Positions 1-47,187 of a stretch of 64,000 nucleotides of DNA are shown piece after piece. Position 1 is the stretch's first letter; every line of letters begins with the position of its first letter. The stretch is from the NCBI GenBank assembly GCA_030248225.1, contig JASANE010005129.1:1-64000 (forward strand). Direction: 5' to 3'. The translations under genes were made by a program, and so were the position numbers. A model generated the notes under the pieces. That model did no database searches, had not been told where the DNA came from, and saw nothing but the letters and a program-made list of their open reading frames with translations. Source of the DNA: Trileptium ribeirensis. Taxonomy: Eukaryota > Nematoda > Enoplea > Enoplida > Thoracostomopsidae.

Positions 1-1
1 A

Positions 2-97
2 TATCTTTTCCTAGATTTGAAGGCAAACACAGAAAATATTCTAAGGGTTCCACAAAATGTATTTCTCGATGATGATCAGATGTATGTATATGCTTAA
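2..97 (+). CDS. C-terminal end of an upstream gene (partial)
   Basis: The frame beginning at base 2 is open for 31 codons and stops at TAA 95-97. It ends in a acidic stretch (LDDDQ) and the residues YVYA. I do not recognise the family. The stop codon is embedded in the ATGCTTAAAAA motif, exactly as at the end of the major capsid gene (KYA then TAA at 4066-4068). That shared arrangement is the main reason to read this as a real gene end belonging to the same virus-like element, which then continues past the left edge of the window. Confidence 0.45.
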   Translation, partial: YLFLDLKANTENILRVPQNVFLDDDQMYVYA

Positions 98-100
98 AAA
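90..100 (+). promoter_or_regulatory. ATGCTTAAAAA motif, copy 1
   Basis: This is an exact copy of the 11-base motif seen again at 1900, 2560 and 4095. It ends 24 bases before the ATG of the first small capsid-associated ORF and overlaps the stop codon of the preceding gene. Position and recurrence suggest a core promoter of the virus-like element. Function is inferred. Confidence 0.55.
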
Positions 101-124
101 GATTTTGATAGATGTAGGAACAAC

Positions 125-400
125 ATGTCGGAACATATGAAAAAACATAAAATTTCTTTAAAGTTTTTGAACGAAGCATCCTCAAGAATTGTGACAGCGG
201 TTATAAAGGTTGCTCCAGATTCACTTGTACGAGCGTTTTCTGAAATTGCACACAACGCGCTAGCGAGGGCTAAGGCGCGTAGAAAATTTTTTAAAAAGCT
301 CGCAAATAAGAAAACAAGAGCTTTTGAGAAAAGAAAAATATTGAAACCGAAACTTGTGAAATATTTAACCAGCTATTTCATCAAATATTATGGCGCGTAA
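125..400 (+). CDS. Small basic Polinton/adintovirus-type protein
   Basis: An intact 91-residue, Lys/Arg-rich ORF. Residues 31-47 (PDSLVRAFSEIAHNALA) resemble the P-x-x-(V/I)-x-A-(I/F)-S-x-x-A-x-N-A-L segment of small proteins that recur beside capsid genes in invertebrate Polintons and adintoviruses, and a KRK run with a basic tail follows. Its job in the family is not well established; a nucleic-acid-associated virion component is plausible. It starts 24 bases after motif copy 1 and overlaps the next ORF by 11 bases, suggesting coupled translation. No break is seen. Family assignment rests on pattern memory, not a search. Confidence 0.65.
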   Translation: MSEHMKKHKISLKFLNEASSRIVTAVIKVAPDSLVRAFSEIAHNALARAKARRKFFKKLANKKTRAFEKRKILKPKLVKYLTSYFIKYYGA

Positions 401-807
401 AATGGCTGTAGTTCCTGTAAGTTGGCTTGATGTAATGCGAAATGGTAAGCTACGAGAGAAAACCCATACACCAATAAGAAATGAAGTTTCTGTGTACGAC
501 CAACATGAGCACAAAAATGACCTATCTTTAATGTTTCCCAAAAATTTGCGAAATAAAGCGAAGTTAATGCTTAATAGTGTTAAAAAATTTAAACCTCAAT
601 GAAAATAATGAAATTACCTATCCGGATAAAACTATTGGATGAAATATTTTTGATCTTATTAGATACTTTGTATCTGATATCAACTTTTCACCTCCACGAC
701 CTTTAGATTCTGAAAAGTTTGAGACACTGCTCTCAGGTGTACCAAGGTCGGCATTTGGGCGGGGGAGAAAAGACAAAATGACGTCATCATGGGAAAGTAT
801 ATACTAG
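390..807 (+). pseudogene. Second small capsid-associated ORF, frameshifted
   Basis: The ATG at 390 lies inside the end of the previous ORF. The N-terminus (MARKMAVVP) matches the M-A-(K/R)-K-M-x-(L/V)-(V/I)-P opening typical of the ORF that follows the small basic protein in invertebrate Polintons. The first frame stops at 600-602. The frame one base on (from about 592) carries the expected distal half (NIFDLIRYF, PPRPLDSEKFETLL, GVPRS) until TAG 805-807, with one internal TGA at 640-642. So one indel, probably in the A-run near 581-587, and one nonsense change separate it from an intact gene. Function unknown; found next to capsid genes in related elements. Confidence 0.6.
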
Positions 808-840
808 CTAACTAACCAATCATCGTGCTTTGTGAAAAAC

Positions 841-849
841 TATATAAAG
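841..849 (+). promoter_or_regulatory. TATA box upstream of NADAR/TBP genes
   Basis: TATATAAAG lies 43 bases before the NADAR start codon, leaving room for a normal initiation site about 30 bases downstream. No ATGCTTAAAAA motif is found in front of this gene pair. The contrast suggests host-type (early) transcription of NADAR and TBP versus motif-driven transcription of structural genes. This is inference from position. Confidence 0.55.
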
Positions 850-891
850 TCTCGCCGCTAGAACCCAAATTCATTTTAATGTTTTGATGCA

Positions 892-1350
892 ATGGAGCAT
901 ACAAAATACTGCACCTCTGTTGACAATACACCACTCGTACTTTTTCGTTCAGGGTGGAGTGTATTCAGCAAGTTTAACGGTAAAATTTTTGTAAATGGAG
1001 TCAACTACAACTGCGTAGAACAGTGGTATCAGAGCGAGAAAGCTCGCTATTTCAATGATGGAGCTTCTTACAACGCTATCATGAATACTTATAAACCGTC
1101 ACAACAGAAGAAAATTGGTCGATATATTATAAACTTTGATGAAAATGAGTGGATACAACACGGTAATGCTATATCCATCATGAAGGTTGGTCTACAAGCA
1201 AAATTCCAACAACTTCCACACGTAAGAGCAGCTCTTATTGGGACTGAAAAAGCTTTAATAGCAGAAGCATCAGAGTGGGATAACTATTGGGGCATAGGCG
1301 AGAGTATATATGATGCAACGAGTCGTGACATTAGGCAATGGACAGGGTAA
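892..1350 (+). CDS. NADAR-domain protein (YbiA-like)
   Basis: Intact 152-residue ORF. NADAR signatures appear in order: FSKFNGKIFVNG near residues 25-36, the C-x-EQ-W-Y-Q-x-x-K block at 41-50, a P-x-x-x-K-x-IGR segment, GLQAKFQQ, and AEASEWDNYWGIG at 124-136 with the conserved W-G-x-G. NADAR proteins remove ADP-ribose from guanosine in nucleic acid (known for DarT-NADAR toxin-antitoxin systems) or act as N-glycosidases on riboflavin intermediates. The usual C-terminal N-x-L-G-x-x-L-M-x-x-R helix is missing or replaced, so the protein is short. It has a TATA box upstream and overlaps the TBP-like ORF by 13 bases. A role in countering host ADP-ribosylation is inference. It is the only long undamaged gene of the cluster besides the first basic ORF. 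Confidence 0.85.
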   Translation: MEHTKYCTSVDNTPLVLFRSGWSVFSKFNGKIFVNGVNYNCVEQWYQSEKARYFNDGASYNAIMNTYKPSQQKKIGRYIINFDENEWIQHGNAISIMKVGLQAKFQQLPHVRAALIGTEKALIAEASEWDNYWGIGESIYDATSRDIRQWTG

Positions 1351-1929
1351 AATGTGTTGGGGCAACTGTGGATGGAACTCCGGGACGAACCCAAGTGCTT
1401 ATAACGAATATGACAATATTATCTAATACAGGTTGTACTATAGACTTGCTGTATTTATCATATAACATTGATAATTTTAATTATAACGCAAAAACATTTA
1501 GCGGGGGAATCTGGAAATTCAAACCACGAGGTACTGTTTTGTTATTTTCTAACGGAAAAATTGTTTTGGTTGGGGTCCGGTCAGAAAATGAAGCTTTTGC
1601 AAATATTGAATCAGGTTCGGGAAAATCTTTTCAAATTAAATTATAACTGTTTAGCACTGTTTAGCTTTACTGTTAAAAATGTAGTTGGACTTTTACACAC
1701 TGGACAGAAACTAAATTTAGGCAATCTGTATAATGAATTGAAACGTACTTTCCGAGTTATGTACGAACCTGAATTACATAACGCGGTTATCCTAAAACTT
1801 GATAAATGTGCTACACTGATATTTAGAACAGGAAAAGTAGTGATTACTGGTTGTGGTAGTATTGAAAGCTATTATATTTATGTGTCTATTGTACATAGTA
1901 TGCTTAAAAGCTTTTATAACCATGTGTGA
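1338..1929 (+). pseudogene. TATA-binding-protein homologue, one frameshift
   Basis: Two tandem TBP repeats are visible. Repeat 1 (frame of 1338) has ITNMTILSNTGCTIDL, a YNAKTF-G turn and PRGTVLLFSNGKIVLVG, the counterpart of the conserved L-I-F-S-S-G-K-x-V-x-T-G strand. Repeat 2 (frame of 1468, stop at 1927-1929) has FTVKNVVG, YEPELHNAVI and LIFRTGKVVITG. The linker reads properly in the second frame from about 1600, so a single indel near 1595-1610 splits the gene; no slippery heptamer is evident. TBP bends promoter DNA and nucleates transcription; virus TBP-like proteins (e.g. in gammaherpesviruses) drive late genes. It overlaps NADAR by 13 bases. The C-terminus contains motif copy 2. Sequence is very diverged from cellular TBP, but repeat order and key strands are clear. 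Confidence 0.8.
1900..1909 (+). promoter_or_regulatory. ATGCTTAAAA motif, copy 2
   Basis: ATGCTTAAAAG, ten of eleven bases identical to the other copies. It sits inside the last codons of the TBP-like gene, 12 bases before the first start codon (1922) of the penton-like gene, so it would serve as that gene's promoter. Confidence 0.5.
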
Positions 1930-2559
1930 TCTAATAATAAACATGGAGGTTGTGATAATTTGTAGTTTGGGAAATGCAACAGTTGAATTTCCGACACAGT
2001 GTTGCGCTACTAATGTTCGCGTGTTGGAAGCAAAAATACCAAAAAAGTATATAAATTTGAACAAAAACACCGTGGAATACATAGAGGCAAAATCATGGAA
2101 AACTTTTACGTTGGAAGATGGTTATTATGACATTGAGACGCTGCTTGAATTTTTAAACAGATTTTCTTCAAAAATTACGTTTATTGTAAACCCTACATGT
2201 GACAAAATAAATATTTATTGTTTGGACGATGCAGAAATAAAGTTATCAGAAGAACTCAAAGCTCTGTTTGGCTTCCAAGTCTCACATTTAAAAATGGAAG
2301 ACACATTGGTGCAAAACCCTTAGATTTGTCTCATAATAAACCTCTCTTTATCTTATGTTCATTTGTAAAAGAGAGACTTTTTAATGGAAAATATAAACCT
2401 ATACTACATGTCATTTCAGAAAATTGCAATAATACTGTATATCTACAACTAAACAACACCCTGCAGAAAACGTTCGAGTTCCAAGTGGTAGATGCAGATT
2501 TCAAACCTGTTAGATTCTTTAAACAATCACAACTATTATTGCGGTTGTGGTTCACATGA
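1922..2559 (+). pseudogene. Penton-like minor capsid protein, frameshifted
   Basis: Frame 1 runs from ATG 1922 (or 1943) to 2323, frame 2 from about 2310 to TGA 2557-2559. Early strands (ATVEFPTQ, RVLEAKIPKKYINL), the LEDGYYDIETLLEFLN segment and, after the break, LDLSHNKPLFILCSFV and YKPILHVI follow the pattern of single-jelly-roll penton-type proteins of Polintons/adintoviruses: fibre-like N-terminal strands, G-x-Y-x-x-x-x-L-L-x-x-L-N, then D-(L/I)-S-x-x-x-x-x-(I/F)-x-(V/L)-x-C. Such proteins form the capsid vertices. One indel near the AAAACCC run at 2312-2318 breaks it. It lies between TBP and the basic core protein, upstream of the major capsid gene, as expected. Confidence 0.65.
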
Positions 2560-2570
2560 ATGCTTAAAAA
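2560..2570 (+). promoter_or_regulatory. ATGCTTAAAAA motif, copy 3
   Basis: Exact copy, 36 bases before the ATG (2606) of the basic core protein gene and directly after the penton stop. It would drive core and major capsid genes together. Confidence 0.55.
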
Positions 2571-2605
2571 GACTTGCATTGCTGTTAATCTTACACTTTT
2601 ATAAA

Positions 2606-2805
2606 ATGTCTACTCCACTTTGTTTCAATTCACCAAAACTGCAGAACGTGACAGTTTCAAGACGTGTTCAAGTTATCAGACGAAAAATCAACCAATTGTT
2701 CGAAAACGCAAAATAACTTCCAGAAAACCCAAAACTCTTAAAAGGAGACGAAAACTTGTCAAACAACAGAAAAAATGGCGCAAACGTATGGGCTTGAAAA
2801 ATTAA
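2606..2805 (+). pseudogene. Lys/Arg-rich core-type protein, frameshifted
   Basis: ATG 2606 opens a frame ending at 2716 with VSRRVQVIRRK; the next frame (2620-2805) continues as an extremely basic tail (RKRK, LKRRRKLVKQQKKWRKR). The shift lies near 2685-2700. Small very basic proteins encoded just before the major capsid gene are typical of Polinton/adenovirus-type gene clusters and are thought to condense DNA. The end overlaps the major capsid start by 31 bases. The assignment rests on composition and position. Confidence 0.5.
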
Positions 2806-4068
2806 ACTGGGAAAAAGGCGTCTATCCTACACAGGACTCTGTTGTTTCAAATCAACTTATTGAAGTAGCGTGTGAAACCACATTACCTAGTTGTGACGTT
2901 GATGATATACTGAGATTCAAAATTAGTGAAAGTGTTTATGATTTAATAGATTTATCTCAAATTTATGTTTACCTTGAGATACAAGTACTACAATCAGACG
3001 GGAAAAATGTACCTGCTGACAAATTAATAATACCTTGCAATCTGTTCGGGTATTCATTATTTTCTGCTATCGAAATGAAGCTTAGTGGTGAACCTATAAC
3101 ATTCAATCAAAAACATTACCCGTGGATGACATACGTACTTTATCACCTGCACATCAGCGCTGATTTTCGAAAACAGTATCTCACGGTGCAATATATGATG
3201 ACGAAGCACCTTACATGTTTAACGAAATAACAGCTGATAATTCTCCAGGTGTACGAAGGAACACAACATTATGATGTCTCAGAAGTGTGAACTATACTTC
3301 CCAGTTGTAACAGATTCACACATAAACCCAAAGTATTTACCACCGAAAACCCGTATGGAATTAGAATTTGTTAGGAGTCCAACAAATTTAGTGCTTTTAC
3401 ACGACGGTAGTTCGGAATATCAAATTCGAATAAATGAGTTCAAACTTTACGTTTCTAAAGTAAAGTTAACAAAACAGGCACTAGAACACCAATCTAGACT
3501 CTTAAGTACCACGGGAGCAAATTATTTCGGAATCAGGTATAAAATACATACCCTATCTGTAAACAAAGGGTTACAAAACGTAGACCGGACAATTTTTGAA
3601 GTAAATCTACCTCGTAGGATATACATATGGTCCATTCTACAGGAAGCTTATGGAGGTTCCGCAAAGAAAAATTTGTTTGACTTTTCCCTTCCGGATATGG
3701 ATCATTTCACAGTATTTATGAACGACGATCGCTATCCGTGTAACATCACTGTACCTTGTTAAAGCTCTAGTGCATTACGGTGGTATTATTTTACATTGCA
3801 GGCATTGGATTATAAAAATGATAACTTGGGTTTAAACCCAACAGCATTTAAACCAGGTGCTGGATATAAAATATTTTGCATTGATTTGAGTCGAGACCAT
3901 AGCAGTGATTGTAACTATCTGAGTAATCCAGAGAATGGACAACTCCGATTATGTATAGACTTCTCGAGCGAACTCAGTAAGGCAATAGTTATTTTCGCAA
4001 TGGGTGAATTTCCTGCTGAACTTCAAATTAACTCTAATCACGATGTGGCTTGGAACAAATATGCTTAA
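2775..4068 (+). pseudogene. Major capsid protein, F54H12.2/Polinton type, broken
   Basis: About 430 codons spread over frames. Segment 1 (2775-3185) holds a FKISESVYDLIDLSQIYVYL block, then IPCNLFGYSLFSAIEMKLSG and HYPWMTYVLYHL. A second frame (about 3187-3271) has DDEAPYMFNE. Segment 3 (3271-3762) has ELYFPVV, YQIRINEFKLYVSKVKL, RRIYIWSI, GSAKKNLFDFSL. After an in-frame TAA (3760-3762) the same frame continues to 4068 with GQLRLCIDFS. This order matches the double-jelly-roll capsid protein annotated in animals as F54H12.2-like, the Polinton/adintovirus hexon equivalent. Two indels (near 3185 and 3265) and one stop make it non-functional as written. The gene ends in KYA with the stop inside a motif-like ATGCTTAAA. 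Confidence 0.8.
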
Positions 4069-4069
4069 A
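4061..4069 (+). promoter_or_regulatory. Partial ATGCTTAAA motif at capsid gene end
   Basis: Nine of the eleven motif bases, overlapping the capsid stop codon. A full copy follows 34 bases downstream, so this may be a duplicated or spent copy. Confidence 0.3.
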
Positions 4070-4094
4070 TGGTTTAAATGCTTTTTCATTAAAC

Positions 4095-4105
4095 ATGCTT
4101 AAAAA
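4095..4105 (+). promoter_or_regulatory. ATGCTTAAAAA motif, copy 4
   Basis: Exact copy, 22 bases before ATG 4128 of the membrane glycoprotein ORF. Spacing agrees with copy 1 (24 bases). Confidence 0.55.
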
Positions 4106-4127
4106 GGTGTCGATTCATAGAGCAAAC

Positions 4128-4622
4128 ATGACCAATAAACTGGTGACTACATAGAAATTTAACCGAACCATACTTTGTCTTGTACTGTTGGCTGCATTAG
4201 TTGTTGTTGAAGGTGTTATATTATTAATCACTGGTATTACGGACCAAAAATTTTCGTGTTTTGAAAATTGGTCGAATGCTTCACAAGTAAAGTTTAATGC
4301 AATAAGCGTGTACGACATTCAATGGATCAATAAAACGTCATCAGACCTACATTTCAATGTCCGTTTGCAACCACCAGCAAATGTGACGTGGGGAAAACAA
4401 GTTATTTATTTGTATGACGTTTTTGAATACGTATTTTTCAAATTACCAATCAACTACAAACATGGCACCATATTTATTCGTGCAGCAGGAATATATCGAG
4501 GTTTTACCTTCTATAAGTGTAACATTGCATCTCAGTTCATGGCAAAATTAGCACAGTTTGACTTTGCGCGAGTCCTTCAAGAAAGATATATAAACGTCAA
4601 AATTCTCGAAGCGTTTCAGTAG
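4128..4622 (+). pseudogene. Putative membrane-anchored glycoprotein of the virus-like element
   Basis: The frame from ATG 4128 meets TAG at codon 9, then is open to TAG 4620-4622. Right after the stop comes a long hydrophobic stretch (ILCLVLLAALVVVEGVILLI), a signal-anchor or signal peptide. The rest is polar with four N-glycosylation sequons (NWS, NAS, NKT, NVT) and two cysteines near the start and end, consistent with an extracellular domain. No family is recognised. It sits behind motif copy 4, directly after the capsid gene, where accessory virion or egress genes often lie. Without the early stop it would be about 164 residues. The stop may be a decay lesion. Confidence 0.45.
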
Positions 4623-4654
4623 TTGATTTCGATTTCCCACAGAACAGTCGTGTC

Positions 4655-4993
4655 ATGGATAACAGACAAGCAAAGACTCACTATAACATTGTCGATTATG
4701 TGCATAATGAATACTTTCAAGAGGAGATTGCTTGTTGGCAATCAAAGGTTATTGAATTTCAAAAGAAGTGTCAATCGACTGGTGAATTTATTGACGGGCG
4801 CTCTCAATGTGAAGATGAATTATTTCACGTACTACAACTACGGCAAACGTTGTTAACAGCAGTTAAATTTATCGCTAGGGAACGGAAAAGGGGAAAAACT
4901 TTTGAGGAATCTATGTATAAATTATCGTGTAAATATCCTCTGTTGTACACAACACATTGTAAAGTACTTGTAAAGTTATTTAAATCAGTGTAG
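4655..4993 (+). CDS. Unrecognised 112-residue ORF
   Basis: Intact ATG-started ORF 33 bases after the glycoprotein frame. It is rich in charged residues with a predicted helical middle (ECEDELFHVLQLRQ-type spacing, ARERKRGKTFEES) and six cysteines. No signal peptide or membrane segment. No motif copy directly upstream, so probably cotranscribed. No domain recognised; base composition and codon use resemble its neighbours, supporting a real gene. Confidence 0.45.
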   Translation: MDNRQAKTHYNIVDYVHNEYFQEEIACWQSKVIEFQKKCQSTGEFIDGRSQCEDELFHVLQLRQTLLTAVKFIARERKRGKTFEESMYKLSCKYPLLYTTHCKVLVKLFKSV

Positions 4994-5017
4994 GTCAGGA
5001 GTGCTCTCATGAGATAG

Positions 5018-5030
5018 GCATTTAAAAAAA
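5018..5030 (+). promoter_or_regulatory. Degenerate TTAAAAA-type element
   Basis: GCATTTAAAAAAA lies 52 bases before ATG 5083. It shares the GC-T-TTAAAAA outline of the motif copies but not the ATG. Weak candidate. Confidence 0.2.
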
Positions 5031-5082
5031 CCTGTTGTTGGTCAGTCTTCATTCTTGTTTTGAACGTTCATAGAAATTAGAA

Positions 5083-5404
5083 ATGTCAGGGCTCATGTTA
5101 AGTCATCATTTAATAGAAAATCACGTTGGAAATTGCATCGTAGGAAACTCTGTTCTTATCGATGACTATAAAAAAACACATATATCAAGCTATAAGAAAC
5201 AGTGATGACCGTTTCATAAGGGGTGACAACCGGACGAAGTACTTTAAAATGTTCGATAAAGTTATTGGTTACAGGGGTTGGGACAATAAACCAGCTAATA
5301 TACTTTGTGTCATTACGGAAGGTAATATTATCATAACAGCTTTTGTATATGCACATGCTGTTTATGCGCGAAAGAGAAAGTATGAGCTTAGAAACCGTAT
5401 GTAA
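5083..5404 (+). pseudogene. Unrecognised last ORF of the cluster, possibly frameshifted
   Basis: ATG 5083 opens a 40-codon frame ending at TGA 5203-5205. The next frame has an ATG at 5162 and continues 80 codons to 5404 (TEGNIIITAF, then ARKRKYELRNR). Both read as plausible protein with hydrophobic strands, so one indel near 5160-5200 may join them. No family recognised. An AATAAA polyadenylation signal follows at 5441-5446, suggesting the 3' end of the + strand transcript. Confidence 0.35.
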
Positions 5405-5689
5405 TTTGCATTTATATTTTGTAATGTAAATATTTTTAGAAAATAAAGAAAAAAAGATTAGCCGTTTGTGACACCGGTAAACTTGATACTTCAACAGCGC
5501 TGGCAAAGCATAAGGACAAGCGTAACTGCGTAACTATAAATAGTAGCTGTGGCATACTAGTCATGTAAAATCCTTGATTTTTTGAAAATGATTTTTATGC
5601 GCTACCGTGCAAACATTGCACGTTGTTGTTGCTGTCGGTCGATATTTATATTTTCTCTTCTAACTCTTTATGGATCCAAGGCAATAGGA
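5405..5689. other. Right flank of the virus-like gene cluster
   Basis: AT-rich DNA with AATAAA at 5441-5446. I see no gene and cannot identify a terminal inverted repeat of the element here. Confidence 0.4.
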
Positions 5690-5812
5690 TGCTATAGGCA
5701 TATATAGCATATATCTATAGCATCCTATAGGTATATATAGGGCATCCTATATATACCTATATACATCCTATAGGTATATAGGGCATCCTATATATACCTA
5801 TAGGATGCCCCA
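5690..5812. repeat. Palindromic TATA/CCTATAGG array
   Basis: Repeated units built from CCTATAGGTATATATAGGGCAT in both orientations, so single strands could fold into long hairpins. It directly abuts the left copy of the inverted block starting at about 5810. Confidence 0.7.
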
Positions 5813-7750
5813 GGGAGGAACAGACTACAGGATTGGACCCAACGAGGAGTCGGGGCCGGGTCACCCCCTTGGAGCCCACCCGCCGAGAGGATCCCCAACC
5901 GCCCCGGACCCACCAGCCCTACGACAGTGCTCCAAACCTGTCCCCTTTTACACCTATGTACATATATAACCATATACATTTGAAAATTTGTAAAACTCAT
6001 GAAGTTTGGCTAATGATTGTTTTTATTATGGGTATATACCTATATATTGTTTGCGTTTATATATCCGTCAGGTCTGTTCTTATATAGACATTATATACAT
6101 ATATAAATGCTGTGTAATAATATTAATAATTATTTGGTTTTAATTACGAAAGAGGCAGATTTTCGAACAAGAGAAAGAGCGAACAAGGAGACAAGAAAAA
6201 GACGAAGGGTCACAGACAGAGATAGAGAGACGAGCGCAGGGAAAGGAGAGAGCGGAAAAACGGACAAAAGGTCGGGAACAGAATGCAACCAAAGATAAAA
6301 GAAAGAATAGACAACCACAGACGACAACCGAAATGTTCGGGTTAAAGAGACAAAAAGACAAAAAGAAAAAACAAGAAGGGCACGGAACGGGACTGATAAC
6401 AAAGGGTTCCCGAAGGAAGTTCTGTGGGCCGGGGTCAGATACGGGCCCAGGACAAAGAACGGGTCCGAACGATACTAAAGACAAGTGGTGTAGACACAAA
6501 AATGGGAGTTGATCCACCGGTGCCAACTTACATATATAAGTACAGAGAGAGTATAGAGTATATAGGTTGTCGGAGCGATGCCGCAATAGACTTGTTGGCC
6601 TCGCCGTCAGAGCACGATTTGGACAAGGGGTGATATCCCTGTCCCGTGGGCAAAAGCCATAACAGTGCTATCATGGCGCAGACAAAGAGAGTTCTAGTAA
6701 GGGTGGGGCGCATTTAGCGATTGTCCTGCGTTAACGGGCGGTCGGACAGAGACATGCGGATATATTTGTGGACGTCACGACCAGTTGAATACAACGAGGA
6801 GTGATTTGCTCACTTTAGAGCTACAAATAAGATTTCGAGGCTTTTATGAACACTATCGGTCATAACGGAACGAGAGCATTTTAACGGGCTATATCGGGCC
6901 AACAATGGTGTTGGTCAAGACCAGGCGCGTTGGATAAGGGGTCGCATACGTATATTGGATATTGCATACGCATACTGGAGAGGCGACTTACGTCATAAAA
7001 CGCCCTCCACGTGGAAGATTTGTCAGTGTGTGATCACGACCATACCATAGTTCATGGTAGTTGGAAGGCTATACTGTTCAGCACAAGTAATGGTGTCGCG
7101 GACACCGTGTACATTGATACACTATGGTGTTGTCGATACCCTATAATTGAACCATAGTTTAAAAAATGAGGGAAAATTAAATTTGGAAATATTTACGCTA
7201 ATTCATTGTATCCCATAAACCATGTCTATTAAAGCTTTGCGTAGGAAGCGCATGAACAAAATTTGCATTGTATAAACTCCCTACAACGGAAACAATGACA
7301 AAACATCTTGCCAAAGAACTTTCATCACCGGTACCCAGAAGCTTACGGTGTTCATGACATAATACATAAATGCAGATGGTGTCCCAAACATCATATAAAA
7401 CTGCTTAGAATACAGTGTTGGTGATCTGTACACAATATCGTTAACGGTGTTACACAGACTGTACGTGGACAAAACTTCCACATGGCGGGCAAATTATAAC
7501 GTAAACGCAGCATTAACGACTAGGCCGATCGAGACACGCTTGGGCTCGCTAGATTCTGTGATAAATGGACTACCACACAACGCACGAAATTTCTCCTTAT
7601 TATATTGCAGTGAAAAGAACGAGGGATTGTAATGTCGGTGGACAAGCGATTTTAGATATCAATGAAGTGAAAACGAGAATTTTGCTGCTGTTATTCGGTG
7701 GGCCAAAGAGTGCGACGAAACCCAATGGTGTACTTTAGTTGTCCAATGGT
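5810..7750 (+). mobile_element. Repeat block, left copy of an inverted pair
   Basis: Several stretches match 15.13-16.19 kb in reverse orientation: the GGATTGGACCCA region (5.82 kb vs about 16.15 kb), CAAACCTGTCCCCTT (5.93 vs 16.05 kb), the TTTTTATTAT and TTTTAATTACGAAAGAGGCAGAT boundary (6.13 vs 15.81 kb), the purine-rich GAAAGAG tract, and ATATCAATGAAGTGAAAACGA (7.66 vs 15.22 kb). No coding capacity; open frames here are low-complexity shadows. Either two copies of one element or long terminal inverted repeats of a 10.4-kb element. Edges are approximate. Confidence 0.5.
7440..7515 (+). repeat. Short dispersed repeat shared with 21.7 kb
   Basis: GTTAACGGTGTTACAC through CTGTACGTGGACAAAACTTCC and TATAACGTAAACGC recur with small changes at 21,700-21,815 in the same orientation. 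Probably a fragment of a repeat family; not coding. Confidence 0.5.
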
Positions 7751-9190
7751 AAGGCTTATCTAACAAAATATCCAGTTCCCATGGGGACGCCTTGTTCGTG
7801 AAAATAAAAAATCACAAAAGTAATTGTTCAACAAAGTTGGTCAAAACCACTGATGAAGCATAATAATTCCTGGTATTATAGGTTTTTACAGAGAGATGGG
7901 GGCAGTGGAAGATTCATTTGTGAGAGTGAGAAAGGAAGTACTCAAGGTATTTCCCCGAAACATAAACCGTTAGACTGTTACGGACTGACGAACGAACCCG
8001 ACACCCATCGCTTCCTAACAGTCGCAAACTTCTGTTTTCATGACGCTGTTATTTTCAGCTTGTTGCTGTCTGTTTCTCTCGCGGGCCAACACTTTGTGTG
8101 TGAGTTCTGCTTAGCCATTACGATACGGTGGAGCAGCTTACAATCAGCATGGGTGAAGTTGATACTTTTAATTTTGCTTACTACCCACTCAGAATTTAAA
8201 CATTCGCCGTTCACTTCCTGGTAAGAGGTCAATGGCCTCCCATTCCCGGACGGTAGTAGCTTTGAGTTTTCGACTGCCTGGGGGTGGTTGAGATCCGTAT
8301 GAATTCAGCCTACAACGACCTCAAAAGCCCTAATACCCTATTCATGTCTGTGGTAGGGTTGTTCTGGCTCTCCTCTAGCTGTTTCTGCTAAATCGAGTAC
8401 GAATGATTCTGCACACATCCGCATGAACTAATCCATCGGATAGGCATAAGGTAAAAACAAAACATGCAAGAACACACACAGCATAAAATAAACCACAACA
8501 TAAGCATAGGAAGGCAATAATAATAACTTATGGACAAAACCACATCGCGACCGCAACCGTGGCACCATGCAGCATGCTATTCCCTAGTTTCCTAAACAAA
8601 TCTCATCCAAAGCACAGCAAAGTGTCTACTTCATAGTGTTGCGGCCCCTATTGTTGCCAAATTCTGGTCCTGGTTATGTTTCTGCTGGATGTTTTGACTC
8701 CGAAATCAGTTGCAGCGCACGTTACAGACCTGAATGGTCTTGTTACGTATGGAAAGGGAAGTTACATCAACCAACTAAAAATCGACGAAAAAAAGCTAGA
8801 AGCATAACTGAAAGCGTAAAAAATGAGAATATGGAAGCGAAGAACGCATAACAGGGCAACAGCCGCTCTTTTTGACCATTTCGGCGGACTGGTCCTGATG
8901 CCGCATCGGACTACCATCTTTTATACCTTCAGTTTATGCCTTGTCCACAGAGAAATGTGTGCGCTTACTCGACATCGTCAGCATATACACGTATGTATGG
9001 ATACATTACATTAGAAATTATGTAACAACCTTCGTGAGTGGTTACGGAAAGTGGGTTCTGTGTAACAACTTTGGTGCGCTGTACGCAGAAGCGCTTGATT
9101 GTAACATTTATAATGTTATTACTTTCGGATGTTGTTATGAGCTTGTTACTCACAACTTTATAACAACAATGCGAGATTGTTACGAAATTG
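7751..9190. other. No gene recognised
   Basis: Mixed-composition DNA. The 9.0-9.19 kb part repeats GTTAC/GTAAC words many times (TGTAACAAC and its reverse). No domain or RNA gene seen. Confidence 0.4.
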
Positions 9191-42925: not shown

Positions 42926-44358
42926 CTACAGACGGGTCGTATCTAGGATCGCGTGATAGAGCATCTGCGTTGCCATTTTTCTTACCTGATCTATACAGTA
43001 TTTCGAATCCTCCAAATTCGAGTAATAGCTCACTTCGCCATTGGGATAAACGTGAATTTCTTGGTGGTTTATCAAACAGGGTTTAAGTGGTTTGTGGTCG
43101 GTCTCGACGTGAAATTTGTGCGCTACGAGGTAATGCTTGAAATGCAGTGCAGCCCATCTAATTGCGAGTGCTTCGGTTTCTATTGCGGGGTATCTGCGTT
43201 GATAATCAAGAAGGGCCTTGCTAGCATATGCAATGGGTTTGATTCCTTTTTTAGTTTTCTGGGATAACACTGCACCCATTGCGTATAAGGAAGCGTCCGT
43301 TTGCAGGATGAACGGCTGTGTGATGTCGGGGTGGATTAAGACCGGTTCAGCCAATAACGCTTGTTTCAATTTTTCGAATGCTTCCTCACACCTAGGGATA
43401 AATTTGAACTCTATATCCTTACATTTTAATTCATTCAATGGTTCACATATGTCCGAGTAATTTTGGATAAATTTATGGTAATACCCCGCAAGTCCTAAGA
43501 AACTTTGGAGCTGTTTCAATGTCTCCGGACGTTTAAATTTTTCTATGGCTATTGCCTTCTCTGGGTCTGATTTGACACCTTCGGTACTAATTATATGCCC
43601 TAAATATTTGATGCTGCCCCGTCCGAATTGACATTTTGATGGCTTGAGTTCTAAATTTGCTGTACGGAAGCGATCGAAGACACGGATCAAATCCGCCAAG
43701 TGGGCCTCGAATGATGGTGAGAAAACTAGTATGTCATCGATGTATATTAAACATTTTATCCACTCAAGTCCTTTCAAAATCATTGACATGCTGCGTTGAA
43801 AGGCTCCGGGGGATGACTTTAGGCCGAACGGTAGGACATTATACTCGTTCTGTCCGTGTACTGTCACAAAAGATGTTCTATCTTTGGTTTTGGGATCCAA
43901 TTCTAATTGCCAAAATCCCTTGTTTAGGTCTAAACTCGACATTAATTTCGTATTCTTGAGACATCCTAGTATGTCTTCTATCCGTGGCAGTGGGTACGCA
44001 TCTTGTTCTGCTACTGTGTTGACCTTCCGAAAGTCGACACAGCGTCGGAGAGAGCCATCGTTCTTTGTTACGTACACTACTGGAGACCCCAAGGTGAACT
44101 AGATGGGGCGATAAGGCCTGCATCTAACATGCTGTTTAGTTCCTCCCTAAGCGCTTCACGTAAGGAATGCGCCAGCCTATATGGTGCTTGCTTGATTGGT
44201 TTTGCATCTCCGGTTTCTATACGGTGTCGGTGTTCAGTGTATCTTCCTAGATCAAAGTCGTGCGTGCTGAATACGTCTGTATTCTCAGCAATCGCAGTTT
44301 TCAATTGTTTTAACTCAAAGGGTGACAATAATGTTATATCGAAGTCTATTTTACTCAA
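42926..44358 (-). pseudogene. Reverse transcriptase and RNase H
   Basis: The N-terminal part (44,358-44,077: KPIKQAPYRLA, LIAPSSSPW) and main part (44,092-42,926) are split by one indel in a GGGG run. The main frame shows SPVVYVTKNDGS, DAYPLPRIED, SSLDLNKGFWQLEL, PFGLKSSPGAFQR, the active site YIDD at residues 117-120, KYLGHIIS, then the connection and RNase H (LQTDASLYAMGAVLSQ, ETDHKPLK). NADALSR appears after another shift in an A-run near 42,960. Clear Ty3/gypsy RT; it copies element RNA into DNA. Confidence 0.92.
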
Positions 44359-44550
44359 TACTGTTTGAGCACGTTCGTGATCGATGGAGCGCTTGCCCGC
44401 CTCGATATGTTAGATAATCCTTTCAGGGTGGGCGGTTATATTATTTAGCTGTTTAGCGTCCTTATGTTCCTCATATCGTATCAAATTTTGATTGGTGTCT
44501 TTAAGGAATTGTATCGTTGGATTTATCATGGCCTCGATATGCTCGATGGT

Positions 44551-45426
44551 TTACCCCGAGTATATCGTGACCGGTGCGTTACCGAAATTGATTACCGCGA
44601 TTGGTATAGTCCGCTGACTCCTAAGCACTAATGCGTGTGCCATCGCGGTATCAGTCATTTCAGGAGCGGGGACAAATATGGCGGTTCCTACACCTATATC
44701 AGCAATTTCAGGGATAGCATTGATAAACGTTTCAGTATTTGGTTCGATGGTGGTGAGCTTTCTGCACATTACAGCGATTTGCGGTGCTTCGTATCGTTCC
44801 AAACCCGCAGAAGGTACCTTATCCTCTTCCTCGTCTACTGCAATTTCTAAACAGCGCTCGCGAAATTTGATGATGCATTTTGGCAGTTGCGACATGAAAT
44901 TTGTTCCTAAAATGCAGTGATATGGGGCGGTTTGGGTGACAAAAAACTCAGTCTGTACCTTAATGGGTCCGATCGACAAGGCTACACTTATGCTACCATT
45001 CAATACCAATTCCTGTTTGGTGCCTGATACTATCCGCGTTGAGTCGTCTGGACGGGGCTGAAGGCCTAGCTTACTTACCAGGTACTGTGATACGATAGAG
45101 ACGTCCGCGCCTGTATCAATCAACGTGAGTACCGGTGTCCGGTAGATGAAGGCGTTGATGCGTACATGTGGTGCATCACATTGACCTTCCGGTGGTCGGC
45201 TACCGTACGATGCCCCCTTACGTAGCACACGCTCGGACACTGCTAATAGTTCAGGGGGCTCTACCAGAACGACGCCTTCGTCCTGGTTGGTGGAATTTCT
45301 TCGGGCTGACCGACGGGAGCTGCTCAGTGCTCGCCATTCCAGGTGTCCCGTGGAAACGGCTGGGGCTGAGACCGTTGGTCGAGCCGCGTCTGGGGTGCCG
45401 TACTCATATCCAGTTTTGATACTCAA
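44551..45426 (-). CDS. Retroviral-type aspartic protease ORF
   Basis: Intact 291-codon frame. The catalytic motif LIDTGADVSIVS is at residues 102-113 and the second conserved stretch (CILGTNFM) near 170; the flap region lies between. The first 90 residues are polar and basic. It begins 40 bases after the Env-like stop and leads, after about 190 broken bases, into RT, so it is the N-terminal part of Pol. It would process Gag-Pol. Confidence 0.85.
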   Translation of the reverse strand: MSIKTGYEYGTPDAARPTVSAPAVSTGHLEWRALSSSRRSARRNSTNQDEGVVLVEPPELLAVSERVLRKGASYGSRPPEGQCDAPHVRINAFIYRTPVLTLIDTGADVSIVSQYLVSKLGLQPRPDDSTRIVSGTKQELVLNGSISVALSIGPIKVQTEFFVTQTAPYHCILGTNFMSQLPKCIIKFRERCLEIAVDEEEDKVPSAGLERYEAPQIAVMCRKLTTIEPNTETFINAIPEIADIGVGTAIFVPAPEMTDTAMAHALVLRSQRTIPIAVINFGNAPVTIYSG

Positions 45427-45465
45427 TTCAAGTCGCCTTGGCTCCGTCCCGCTACATGGTCGTTG

Positions 45466-47187
45466 CTACCACCAGCGCTGTAAGCGTCCATTTATGCATT
45501 TAGCGCAGAAACCAGCTTCCTTCCTGAAGTAAATTATTGCCCCTATGCCAACAACTACCAGCAAAATGAGCATCAATAGGTAAGGAGCTACTCCAGTTGT
45601 AGTAATATATGGAAAGTCGATTACCTTCTTCAACTGCTCATCTGCTATTTGCTGGACTTGCAGGTTCGTCGCCTTGGCGTGTTCTAATGAGCTCCAGGTG
45701 ATCGGCCTAAGAGGGATATCTGGGAAGTCATGTACGGTGATGTTGGGTCCAATGTGAACGGTGACCTCCTGAACGTCTAGGGTGCTGGCAAGCATTACTG
45801 GTCCGACCACTAGTTGGGTGTAATCGCCGTGCGACAACCATATTACTCCATTTTCTGGTATCTTGATGGTTTCTCCGCGGGTGACATGGCTGAGGTGTTT
45901 TTTCTTGGAAACAACGGCTTTGGGTTCGGCGGTTCGGATTAGCACCCCTTGAGCGGTGCTGTACACGTCGGTATGGTTAACCATTGGCCCGACCAATACG
46001 CTATTCTTGCATATGTAGCGTGTGTCATCTGGAGCGTTTTCGCCCATGATGATCCAATCCAGACAGCGTGAGGTATGATCGGTAGCCAATGCGTGAACTT
46101 CGCAAAAAGCAATGCCGGGTCGCGTGTTGCATGCGTGTAAGTTTAACACCTTATACCGCGCAAGTTCAACTCGCGTGGCGTATTCCGGCAGAGGCAGTGT
46201 CATATGCGCCCTACGTTCCGGTACAATCCAACCAACGTTGTAGATCCGAAAATAAGGCCGAACATCGTCTGACGAAACTAATGGTACCCTCAAAATGAAC
46301 GCAAACTTAAACGTGCCCAGGTCGATGTGTACCGGGTAAATCTGTCCAAACAGGTAGGCTAGTGCCGGCTCACGTATTAATATAGTTTGCAATATCCTTG
46401 GGTCCTTCTGGAATAGTTGCTTTAGCGCCGTGGCGTCCACCACTTTTGGTGACAGCTGCCCGCTCATCATGGCTTCATTGACGGCGTCAACCGAAGAGTG
46501 TAGGGTGGTGCAAAACATGTAGTTCACCAATTCACGATGGACCTCCGTAACGTAACGCTGTTCCTGGCACCTTATTTGTTCTATCATACTAACCACCTCC
46601 TGCATCTTATGATGTAGGAATGAATAGAGCTCCTCGTTAGAGCGTGTTAATTTCATGATCGCTCGCGAGTTACCATAGGCTACGTTGTAAGTGTTCCGCA
46701 TTTCCTTAGACAGCGTAACCACCTGTTTATTTAGATCCTTTAGATGCACCGCGTTAGTAAAAGCTACTCCAACCCCTAAGAATCCTGTAACTACGCCAGC
46801 AGCTCCAGCTAATGCAGCGAGAAATCGTTTCTTTGGAGCCTTAGACTCTTTGCAAAAATGGACGTTCGCTTCACAATACTCGCGCATTAAAGCCATATAG
46901 TAGCTCGTGTCTAACACGCCTTGGTACGTGCTTCGTAGTTCCCTTTCTAACTCCTGGATTTTACGTTGTAAATCCGGCATGGTAGTACAATTAGGGTTGG
47001 GACAACAGTCTCCCAGACATGGTTTACCTCTGGGGGTGTAAACACACCATGCCATACCGGTTGCTTGCCTGCTCGGTTGTAGCCCATCCAGGGACAATCG
47101 CAAAACGATCGGTAGGAAGGTGGATCGCGAGGCCGTTATTACCAAACCATGTGGTTCGATCAATGTACCCACTTGTTGGTTGACCAT
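45466..47187 (-). CDS. Env/F-like class I fusion glycoprotein
   Basis: Intact 573-codon frame. A basic KKR site (residues 119-121) precedes a Gly/Ala-rich hydrophobic fusion-peptide-like stretch (122-144), then a heptad-type helix region (about 150-215). A SGQLSPKVVD segment resembles the G-x-L-S-P element of baculovirus F/errantivirus Env. Several paired Cys follow, then a single membrane anchor (532-554) and a short Cys/basic tail. Sequons NCT and NHT are present; no clear N-terminal signal peptide is seen. Such proteins mediate membrane fusion. Position is odd: it lies before protease and pol, not after integrase. It is the longest undamaged frame in the window. Confidence 0.7.
   Translation of the reverse strand: MVNQQVGTLIEPHGLVITASRSTFLPIVLRLSLDGLQPSRQATGMAWCVYTPRGKPCLGDCCPNPNCTTMPDLQRKIQELERELRSTYQGVLDTSYYMALMREYCEANVHFCKESKAPKKRFLAALAGAAGVVTGFLGVGVAFTNAVHLKDLNKQVVTLSKEMRNTYNVAYGNSRAIMKLTRSNEELYSFLHHKMQEVVSMIEQIRCQEQRYVTEVHRELVNYMFCTTLHSSVDAVNEAMMSGQLSPKVVDATALKQLFQKDPRILQTILIREPALAYLFGQIYPVHIDLGTFKFAFILRVPLVSSDDVRPYFRIYNVGWIVPERRAHMTLPLPEYATRVELARYKVLNLHACNTRPGIAFCEVHALATDHTSRCLDWIIMGENAPDDTRYICKNSVLVGPMVNHTDVYSTAQGVLIRTAEPKAVVSKKKHLSHVTRGETIKIPENGVIWLSHGDYTQLVVGPVMLASTLDVQEVTVHIGPNITVHDFPDIPLRPITWSSLEHAKATNLQVQQIADEQLKKVIDFPYITTTGVAPYLLMLILLVVVGIGAIIYFRKEAGFCAKCINGRLQRWW

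What the first reader, a model, noticed from the sequence alone, without database searches (positions are those of the whole stretch)
1338..1929. A TATA-binding-protein homologue inside a Polinton-like capsid cluster
Both TBP repeats are recognisable (LLFSNGKIVLVG and LIFRTGKVVITG strands, YEPEL turn), yet the gene is wedged between NADAR and penton genes and overlaps NADAR by 13 bases, so it belongs to the element. I know virus TBP-like proteins from herpesviruses and some giant viruses, but not as a Polinton/adintovirus gene. It could be a captured host TBP used to redirect transcription.
Basis: partly seen in the sequence, partly recalled or inferred. Interest (0 to 1): 0.88.

Follow-up and report, generated by a model that had tools for sequence, protein, structure and literature searches.

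The report
TATA-binding protein inside animal Polinton elements
Virus-like Polinton elements in an animal-like genome carry, beside their capsid genes, their own version of the TATA-binding protein that cells use to start transcription; it is kept by selection in many copies and has altered DNA-contact residues, which suggests these elements bring their own promoter-recognition factor.

Summary
Window 1338-1929 encodes both TBP repeats (Pfam E 7e-13 and 6e-16) between a NADAR gene and F54H12.2-type capsid genes. This copy is a broken remnant: the repeats lie in different frames, and the capsid gene is in three pieces. The gene is no chance passenger. The window's own 687-Mb genome has at least 150 places matching its first repeat, apart from one intron-split host TBP gene. 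In all 44 TBP-found loci I read, other element genes lie beside it (NADAR 39, penton-like 40, capsid 41). Open copies evolve under purifying selection (median dN/dS 0.20). An independent Polinton contig (L001: integrase, capsid, PolB) also carries a TBP, which folds as one (pLDDT 97, TM 0.91 to human TBP). Element TBPs are about 31% identical to a fish TBP and outside the cellular clade, so any host capture is old. The TFIIB-facing YEPEL turn and most DNA-face residues are kept, while Thr124, Phe190 and the second stirrup are changed. Best reading (inferred): an element-encoded, re-targeted TBP for the element's own promoters; main rival: a decoy. How many related elements lack the gene could not be measured. 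No report of TBP in Polintons was found, but the founding adintovirus paper was not held.

The parts
125..400 (+). small basic ORF of the element, function unknown (W125)
   Evidence: no Pfam match; homologues at the same place in related loci
390..602 (+). ORF of the element, function unknown (W390)
   Evidence: no match over a Pfam cut-off; conserved in related loci
779..786 (+). TGACGTCA (CRE-like), the only one in the window
   Evidence: one is also what chance gives: mean 0.87 in shuffles; kept about 114 bases before NADAR in the window's own subfamily, absent from most other families
841..849 (+). TATATAAAG, TATA box about 50 bases before the NADAR start
   Evidence: 3 in the window, 0.89 expected; kept in the window's own subfamily
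892..1350 (+). NADAR-domain gene, open
   Evidence: PF08719 E 8.3e-29
1338..1646 (+). TBP-like gene, first repeat (broken copy, frame ends in a premature stop)
   Evidence: PF00352 E 7.4e-13; 95% identical to the first repeat of the open copy in L012
1627..1929 (+). TBP-like gene, second repeat, in another frame
   Evidence: PF00352 E 5.8e-16 in the frame of 1468-1929
   Evidence: conserved next to TBP in related loci; no Pfam match
2218..2559 (+). penton-like gene, continuing in another frame
   Evidence: conserved in related loci; both pieces fall in one ORF of 204-208 aa in eight of the 16 longer loci
2775..3230 (+). major capsid gene, piece a
   Evidence: capsid profile E 2.4e-16
3271..3762 (+). 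major capsid gene, piece b
   Evidence: capsid profile E 6.4e-24
3796..4068 (+). major capsid gene, piece c
   Evidence: capsid profile E 1.8e-12
4188..4622 (+). ORF of the element, function unknown (W4188)
   Evidence: no Pfam match; conserved after the capsid gene in related loci
4655..4993 (+). ORF of the element, function unknown (W4655)
   Evidence: no match over a Pfam cut-off; conserved in related loci

Best explanation
The window starts inside a decayed Polinton/adintovirus-type element whose capsid-gene cassette carries an element-encoded TBP. Shown: the gene is a TBP by profile (and, in L001, by predicted fold), it is a recurrent part of the NADAR - TBP - penton-like - capsid cassette, and open copies show purifying selection. 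Inferred: the protein enters the nucleus, binds DNA in the TBP manner but with altered sequence preference, and recruits host TFIIB and RNA polymerase II to element promoters, so that the element does not depend on, or competes with, host TBP/TFIID.
For: Profile and fold. Place in the element: 44 of 44 loci with other element genes, NADAR 39, penton-like 40, capsid 41, integrase in 10 of the 16 longer loci; L001, an independent Polinton contig with integrase, capsid, PolB and TBP. Selection: 35 pairs with dS 0.05-1.2, median dN/dS 0.20. Host-facing side: positions of the TFIIB contacts (yeast E186, E188, L189; role recalled) are E 31, E 32, L 25 + I 5 of 32 in this genome's element TBPs and E 80 + D 11, E 93 + D 8, L 53 + I 36 of 101 in family F. 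DNA side: N69 32 of 32, F99 32, F116 29, T215 32, F207 25 of 32 kept, but T124 is V 29 / L 3, F190 is H 21 of 32, and the second stirrup is two residues shorter in 32 of 32. In family F, T124 is N in 76 and N159 is T in 99 of 101. T124N abolishes DNA binding of yeast TBP (PMC2265533 Table 1, passages); F190 and N159 are in that table too, but not with the H and T seen here, nor T124 with V.
Against: No expression, binding or promoter data. No promoter motif shared by all families was found: CRE in 11 of 38 and a TATA match at -110 to -40 in 17 of 38 upstream regions, no shuffled control. The helix residue at yeast R141 is not kept in this genome's element clade, though it is in family F (91 of 101). 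The T124 change could mean loss rather than change of DNA binding. The loci were found through TBP, so the share of elements without it is unknown.
Confidence: 0.55

Rival explanations
1. Decoy: the element TBP no longer binds promoter DNA usefully but titrates TFIIB or other TBP partners, damping host (or competing virus) transcription.
For: TFIIB-facing YEPEL kept while Thr124 is replaced in 32 of 32 element copies of this genome, and by N (a yeast DNA-binding null, PMC2265533) in 76 of 101 of family F.
Against: N69, F99, F116, F207 and T215, all on the DNA face, stay largely conserved, which a pure decoy would not need.
Confidence: 0.2
2. A redundant TBP: the gene simply adds TBP dose and works as host TBP does on ordinary TATA boxes.
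For: Fold match of the L001 protein to human TBP, TM 0.91; TATATAAAG before NADAR in the window.
Against: About 31% identity to an animal TBP, changed DNA contacts and shortened stirrup; a TATA match upstream of the cassette in only 17 of 38 regions.
Confidence: 0.12
3. The protein uses the TBP fold for something other than transcription, such as bending element DNA for replication or packaging.
For: The gene sits in the capsid cassette beside small ORFs of unknown function; TBP bends DNA (recalled).
Against: TFIIB-contact residues E186/E188 kept in 31 and 32 of 32, for which there is no obvious reason outside transcription.
Confidence: 0.1
4. Host TBP duplicates or retrocopies that happen to lie near element fragments.
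For: The window copy is broken, and the rest of the window holds retroelement-like ORFs (by eye).
Against: 44 of 44 loci with other element genes and 37 of 37 on NADAR's strand; clade apart from cellular TBPs; purifying selection; an independent Polinton with the same kind of gene.
Confidence: 0.01

Closest known systems
Polinton/Maverick elements, adintoviruses (F54H12.2-type capsid)
   Same: Double-jelly-roll capsid, retrovirus-type integrase, PolB in L001
   Different: Carries a TBP gene and a NADAR gene in the capsid cassette; searched for inside PMC11071296, PMC11071308, PMC12220804, PMC10120064, PMC9952930 and PMC12721341, neither was found
Cellular TBP (PF00352; human TBP)
   Same: Two repeats, saddle fold, TM 0.91 for L001, YEPEL and most DNA-face residues
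   Different: Separate clade, Thr124 lost, F190 mostly His in this genome, second stirrup two residues shorter, tryptophan in the first stirrup in 26 of 32
TBPs of mirusviruses and giant viruses (ASFV B263R)
   Same: DNA-virus-encoded TBP; mirusviruses 59% of genomes (PMC10132985, passages); B263R (PMC5825884, search listing)
   Different: Those viruses carry their own RNA polymerase (PMC10132985 passages; ASFV abstract start); giant-virus TBP models are further from the L001 model than human TBP is
TBP of Haloarcula virus HJTV-2
   Same: Virus-encoded TBP beside other virus genes
   Different: Archaeal tailed virus; groups with haloarchaeal TBP
Tetranychus-type short TBPs (P0002 and kin)
   Same: Many short divergent TBPs in one animal, six Tetranychus urticae entries among the listed hits
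   Different: Own clade, canonical 18-residue second stirrup in 20 of 20; genomic surroundings unknown

Membership tests
TBP (PF00352) | profile match over the curated cut-off for both repeats | tested here: met
   window pieces 48.6 and 58.6 bits, cut-off 22.9; five intact relatives 97-113 bits over two stretches
TBP (PF00352) | saddle fold | tested here: met
TBP (PF00352) | DNA-contact residues | tested here: inconclusive
   N69, F99, F116, F207, T215 mostly kept; T124 and F190 mostly changed
TBP (PF00352) | binds TATA DNA and TFIIB | not testable with these tools
   needs protein
Polinton/Maverick (adintovirus-type) | double-jelly-roll major capsid of the F54H12.2 type | tested here: met
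Polinton/Maverick (adintovirus-type) | retrovirus-type integrase | tested here: met
   in relatives: 10 of 16 longer loci and L028, L001; none found in the window, which starts inside the element
Polinton/Maverick (adintovirus-type) | protein-primed PolB | tested here: inconclusive
   PF03175 in L001; no match in the window; not searched in the rest of the window's genome
Polinton/Maverick (adintovirus-type) | packaging ATPase and terminal inverted repeats | not tested
   window truncated at base 1; the repeat search of 1-9000 showed short AT-rich repeats near 5.7 kb and a 26-31-base direct repeat at 90, 2560 and 4095

The most novel reading that the evidence does not exclude
Polintons of animals encode an alternative TBP with its own DNA code: a virus-specific promoter-recognition factor that, without any viral RNA polymerase, diverts host polymerase II to element promoters. 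Two old lineages (the one in this genome and family F with L001) would carry parallel changes of the central DNA contacts (T124 to V or N, N159 to T in F) and the same shortened second stirrup.
Probability: 0.4. Interest if true: 0.92.

Novelty: new variant of a known kind. Interest (0 to 1): 0.8.

Why it matters
Polintons are seen as small virus-like elements that rely on host transcription (recalled). A TBP kept by selection in them would give a direct handle on how they find promoters, and supplies a large natural series of re-shaped TBPs with altered DNA contacts. That makes an old question testable: can TBP specificity be changed, and how do such elements tell their genes from the host's?

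Tried and rejected
Viral collections gave no context: eight scans of IMG/VR with the window TBP frame, a window capsid piece, TBP alignments A3, A4, A7 and A11, the L001 capsid and capsid alignment A10 found no relative. The phage collection gave no capsid match and only HJTV-2 (two records) for TBP. The plasmid collection gave 61 records, those named being haloarchaea.

A shared promoter (CRE + CCAAT + TATA) seemed common to the window and L001: L001 has 4 TGACGTCA against 0.11 expected, three of them just before its TBP, but no TATA match there, and the single one in the window is what chance gives (mean 0.87). Most other families in the genome lack it (CRE or near-CRE in 11 of 38 upstream regions; duplicates L052 and L053 and the empty L019 dropped). 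It is now a subfamily trait.

Placing the window's own pieces by tree failed: repeat 1 went next to the Tetranychus-type clade (97/88), repeat 2 was unresolved, and no grouping was rejected. Profile scores leaned to family F (repeat 1: F 47.4, T 29.6, cellular 24.8 bits; repeat 2: 42.0, 40.3, 35.9; the cellular profile rests on 5 rows). Open relatives in the same genome then gave one clade (99/93) that is not sister to family F, which went with cellular TBPs (94/80). This tree speaks against one origin of family F and this genome's TBPs; the shared short second stirrup (32 of 32; 100 of 101; 0 of 20 Tetranychus-type; 0 of 5 cellular) speaks for it. Left open.

An intron instead of a frame change in the window copy was considered and rejected: the span 1338-1929 is about as long as the uninterrupted ORF of the close relative L016, and the capsid gene is broken too. 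The reciprocal census (what share of capsid loci have a TBP) could not be run: the search did not complete. Of the 44 loci read, 28 are the best-scoring element places and 16 were picked by me from the same list to cover different frame lengths; several are near-identical copies, so they are not 44 independent cases. Selection was measured only on open copies, which favours low dN/dS: of 38 TBP ORFs, L025, L052 and L053 were dropped, leaving 35, of which 32 distinct; of 496 pairs 254 gave a defined value (35 in the range used, 210 deeper, 9 shallower). The tree holds 29 of those 32. The roles of residue positions (yeast numbering) are recalled, apart from the mutant table in PMC2265533.

Full report
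What is there. The window is contig C3402, bases 1-64000, of a 687-Mb genome of 20,229 contigs. Its first 5 kb hold a run of plus-strand genes: two small ORFs (125-400, 390-602), NADAR (892-1350), the TBP-like gene (1338-1929), a penton-like gene in two frames (1943-2559), a capsid gene in three pieces (2775-4068) and two more ORFs (4188-4622, 4655-4993). Both TBP repeats match PF00352 well over its cut-off (E 7.4e-13 and 5.8e-16) and match solved TBPs. This copy is broken: the frame gives way between about 1600 and 1630, and the capsid and penton-like genes are broken too. It is a fossil. The host was not identified; repeats and intron structure fit an animal, but that is inference.

The family. 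A profile of four rows found 395 proteins at E 0.001 or better, 120 listed. Most of those listed are short stand-alone TBPs of about 170 aa from unnamed contigs; named entries come from Mercenaria, Tetranychus and a Solemya symbiont assembly. With the seven hits and L001 this made 126 rows, of which by best match 101 fall in family F (with L001), 20 in a Tetranychus type and 5 in a cellular type.

In the window's own genome. A PF00352 search scored 150 of 975 candidates, all over the cut-off. One place stands out (110 bits, C9496): an ordinary, intron-split host TBP, whose exons are 59-67% identical to a fish TBP-like protein; a second exon of it scores 62 bits. The others score 53-63 bits per repeat. 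A search with the first repeat of an open copy scored 150 of 570 candidates; 133 of the 150 matched stretches hold no stop and 17 do. I read 44 element-type loci (L006-L050 without the host locus L014): all 44 carry at least one other element gene; NADAR 39, penton-like 40, capsid 41, NADAR and penton-like both 35. Of the 16 longer loci (L035-L050) capsid is in 16, NADAR in 15, penton-like in 14 and integrase in 10. Misses: no NADAR in L015, L026, L032 (short stretches), L028 (integrase in its place) and L046; no penton-like gene in L009, L033, L041, L047; no capsid in L009, L015, L033. TBP is on NADAR's strand in 37 of 37 loci where both were placed, and the matches touch or overlap in 19 of 37. 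Host locus L051 shows no element gene.

Selection. Among 32 distinct open copies, 35 pairs with dS between 0.05 and 1.2 have a median dN/dS of 0.20; 210 deeper pairs, 0.24. The elements keep this protein's sequence. Only open copies were used, which biases the value downwards.

Origin. A 61-row tree gives each group as one clade: this genome's element TBPs (29 rows, 99/93), family F with L001 (19 rows, 100/98), Tetranychus type (7 rows, 100/100) and cellular eukaryotic (5 rows, 99/93). Element TBPs are about 31% identical to a fish TBP (median over 32). So the gene was not taken recently from this host. Whether F and this genome's lineage share one capture is open: the tree joins F with cellular TBPs (94/80), but both lineages have a second stirrup of 16 rather than 18 residues (32 of 32 and 100 of 101) and mostly a tryptophan in the first stirrup (26 of 32 and 100 of 101), unlike the cellular (0 of 5) and Tetranychus-type proteins. 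The window copy has both marks.

How it may work. Kept in this genome's copies: N69, F99, F116, T215 and the YEPEL turn (TFIIB side; roles recalled). Changed: T124 to V (29) or L (3) of 32 here, and to N in 76 of 101 in family F; F190 to H in 21 of 32; N159 to T in 99 of 101 in family F but kept in 28 of 32 here. A published table lists T124N among yeast TBP mutants that lose DNA binding, and other changes at F190 and N159 than those seen here (PMC2265533, passages read). Changes at T124 in both lineages, in proteins that keep the rest of the saddle and the TFIIB turn, point to a re-targeted TBP; a decoy is the main rival. The window subfamily has TGACGTCA and TATATAAAG before NADAR, so the cassette itself could start from host factors, but most other families do not share this.

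Known or new. Virus-encoded TBPs are known in mirusviruses (PMC10132985, passages), ASFV (PMC5825884, listing) and a haloarchaeal virus. A paper on Cymbomonas names TATA-binding proteins in mirusvirus-like elements; the passages seen do not put them in its Polinton-like viruses (PMC10675990). Searches for TATA-binding protein with Polinton, NADAR with Polinton, adintovirus with TATA, Maverick with TBP and capsid, and a last mixed search (10 of 28 papers listed) gave no report of TBP in Polintons. Looked into by word search: PMC11071296, PMC11071308, PMC12220804, PMC10120064, PMC9952930 and PMC12721341 hold neither TBP nor NADAR; PMC7786948 and PMC11640650 hold the words in other senses. Other listed papers, PMC8696169 among them, were not opened.

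Noticed in passing
window 892-1350 and 39 of 44 related loci: A NADAR-domain gene is as regular a part of the cassette as TBP; the best phage matches listed are about 38-39% identical. NADAR was not found with Polinton in the papers searched.
   Followed up: partly
proteins P0002, P0008, P0017, P0018, P0025, P0080: Tetranychus urticae has several short divergent TBPs of a third type, which may also be element genes; their surroundings could not be seen.
   Followed up: no
L001 573-842 (-): A C2H2 zinc-finger-like ORF (by eye) lies beside the TBP end of the L001 element.
   Followed up: no
L028: An integrase stands directly before TBP where other loci have NADAR, so cassettes recombine or nest.
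   Followed up: no
window 42926-47187 (-): Reverse-transcriptase-like and envelope-like ORFs (388 aa and 573 aa) suggest an LTR retrotransposon with an env-type gene (by eye only).
   Followed up: no
G000 contigs with 267-, 272- and 333-aa frames: Groups of TBP-like copies with identical scores point to recent bursts of several element families in this genome.
   Followed up: no
window 90-120, 2560-2585, 4095-4125: A 26-31-base direct repeat (ATGCTTAAAAAG...) lies three times within the element; it may be a regulatory site.
   Followed up: no
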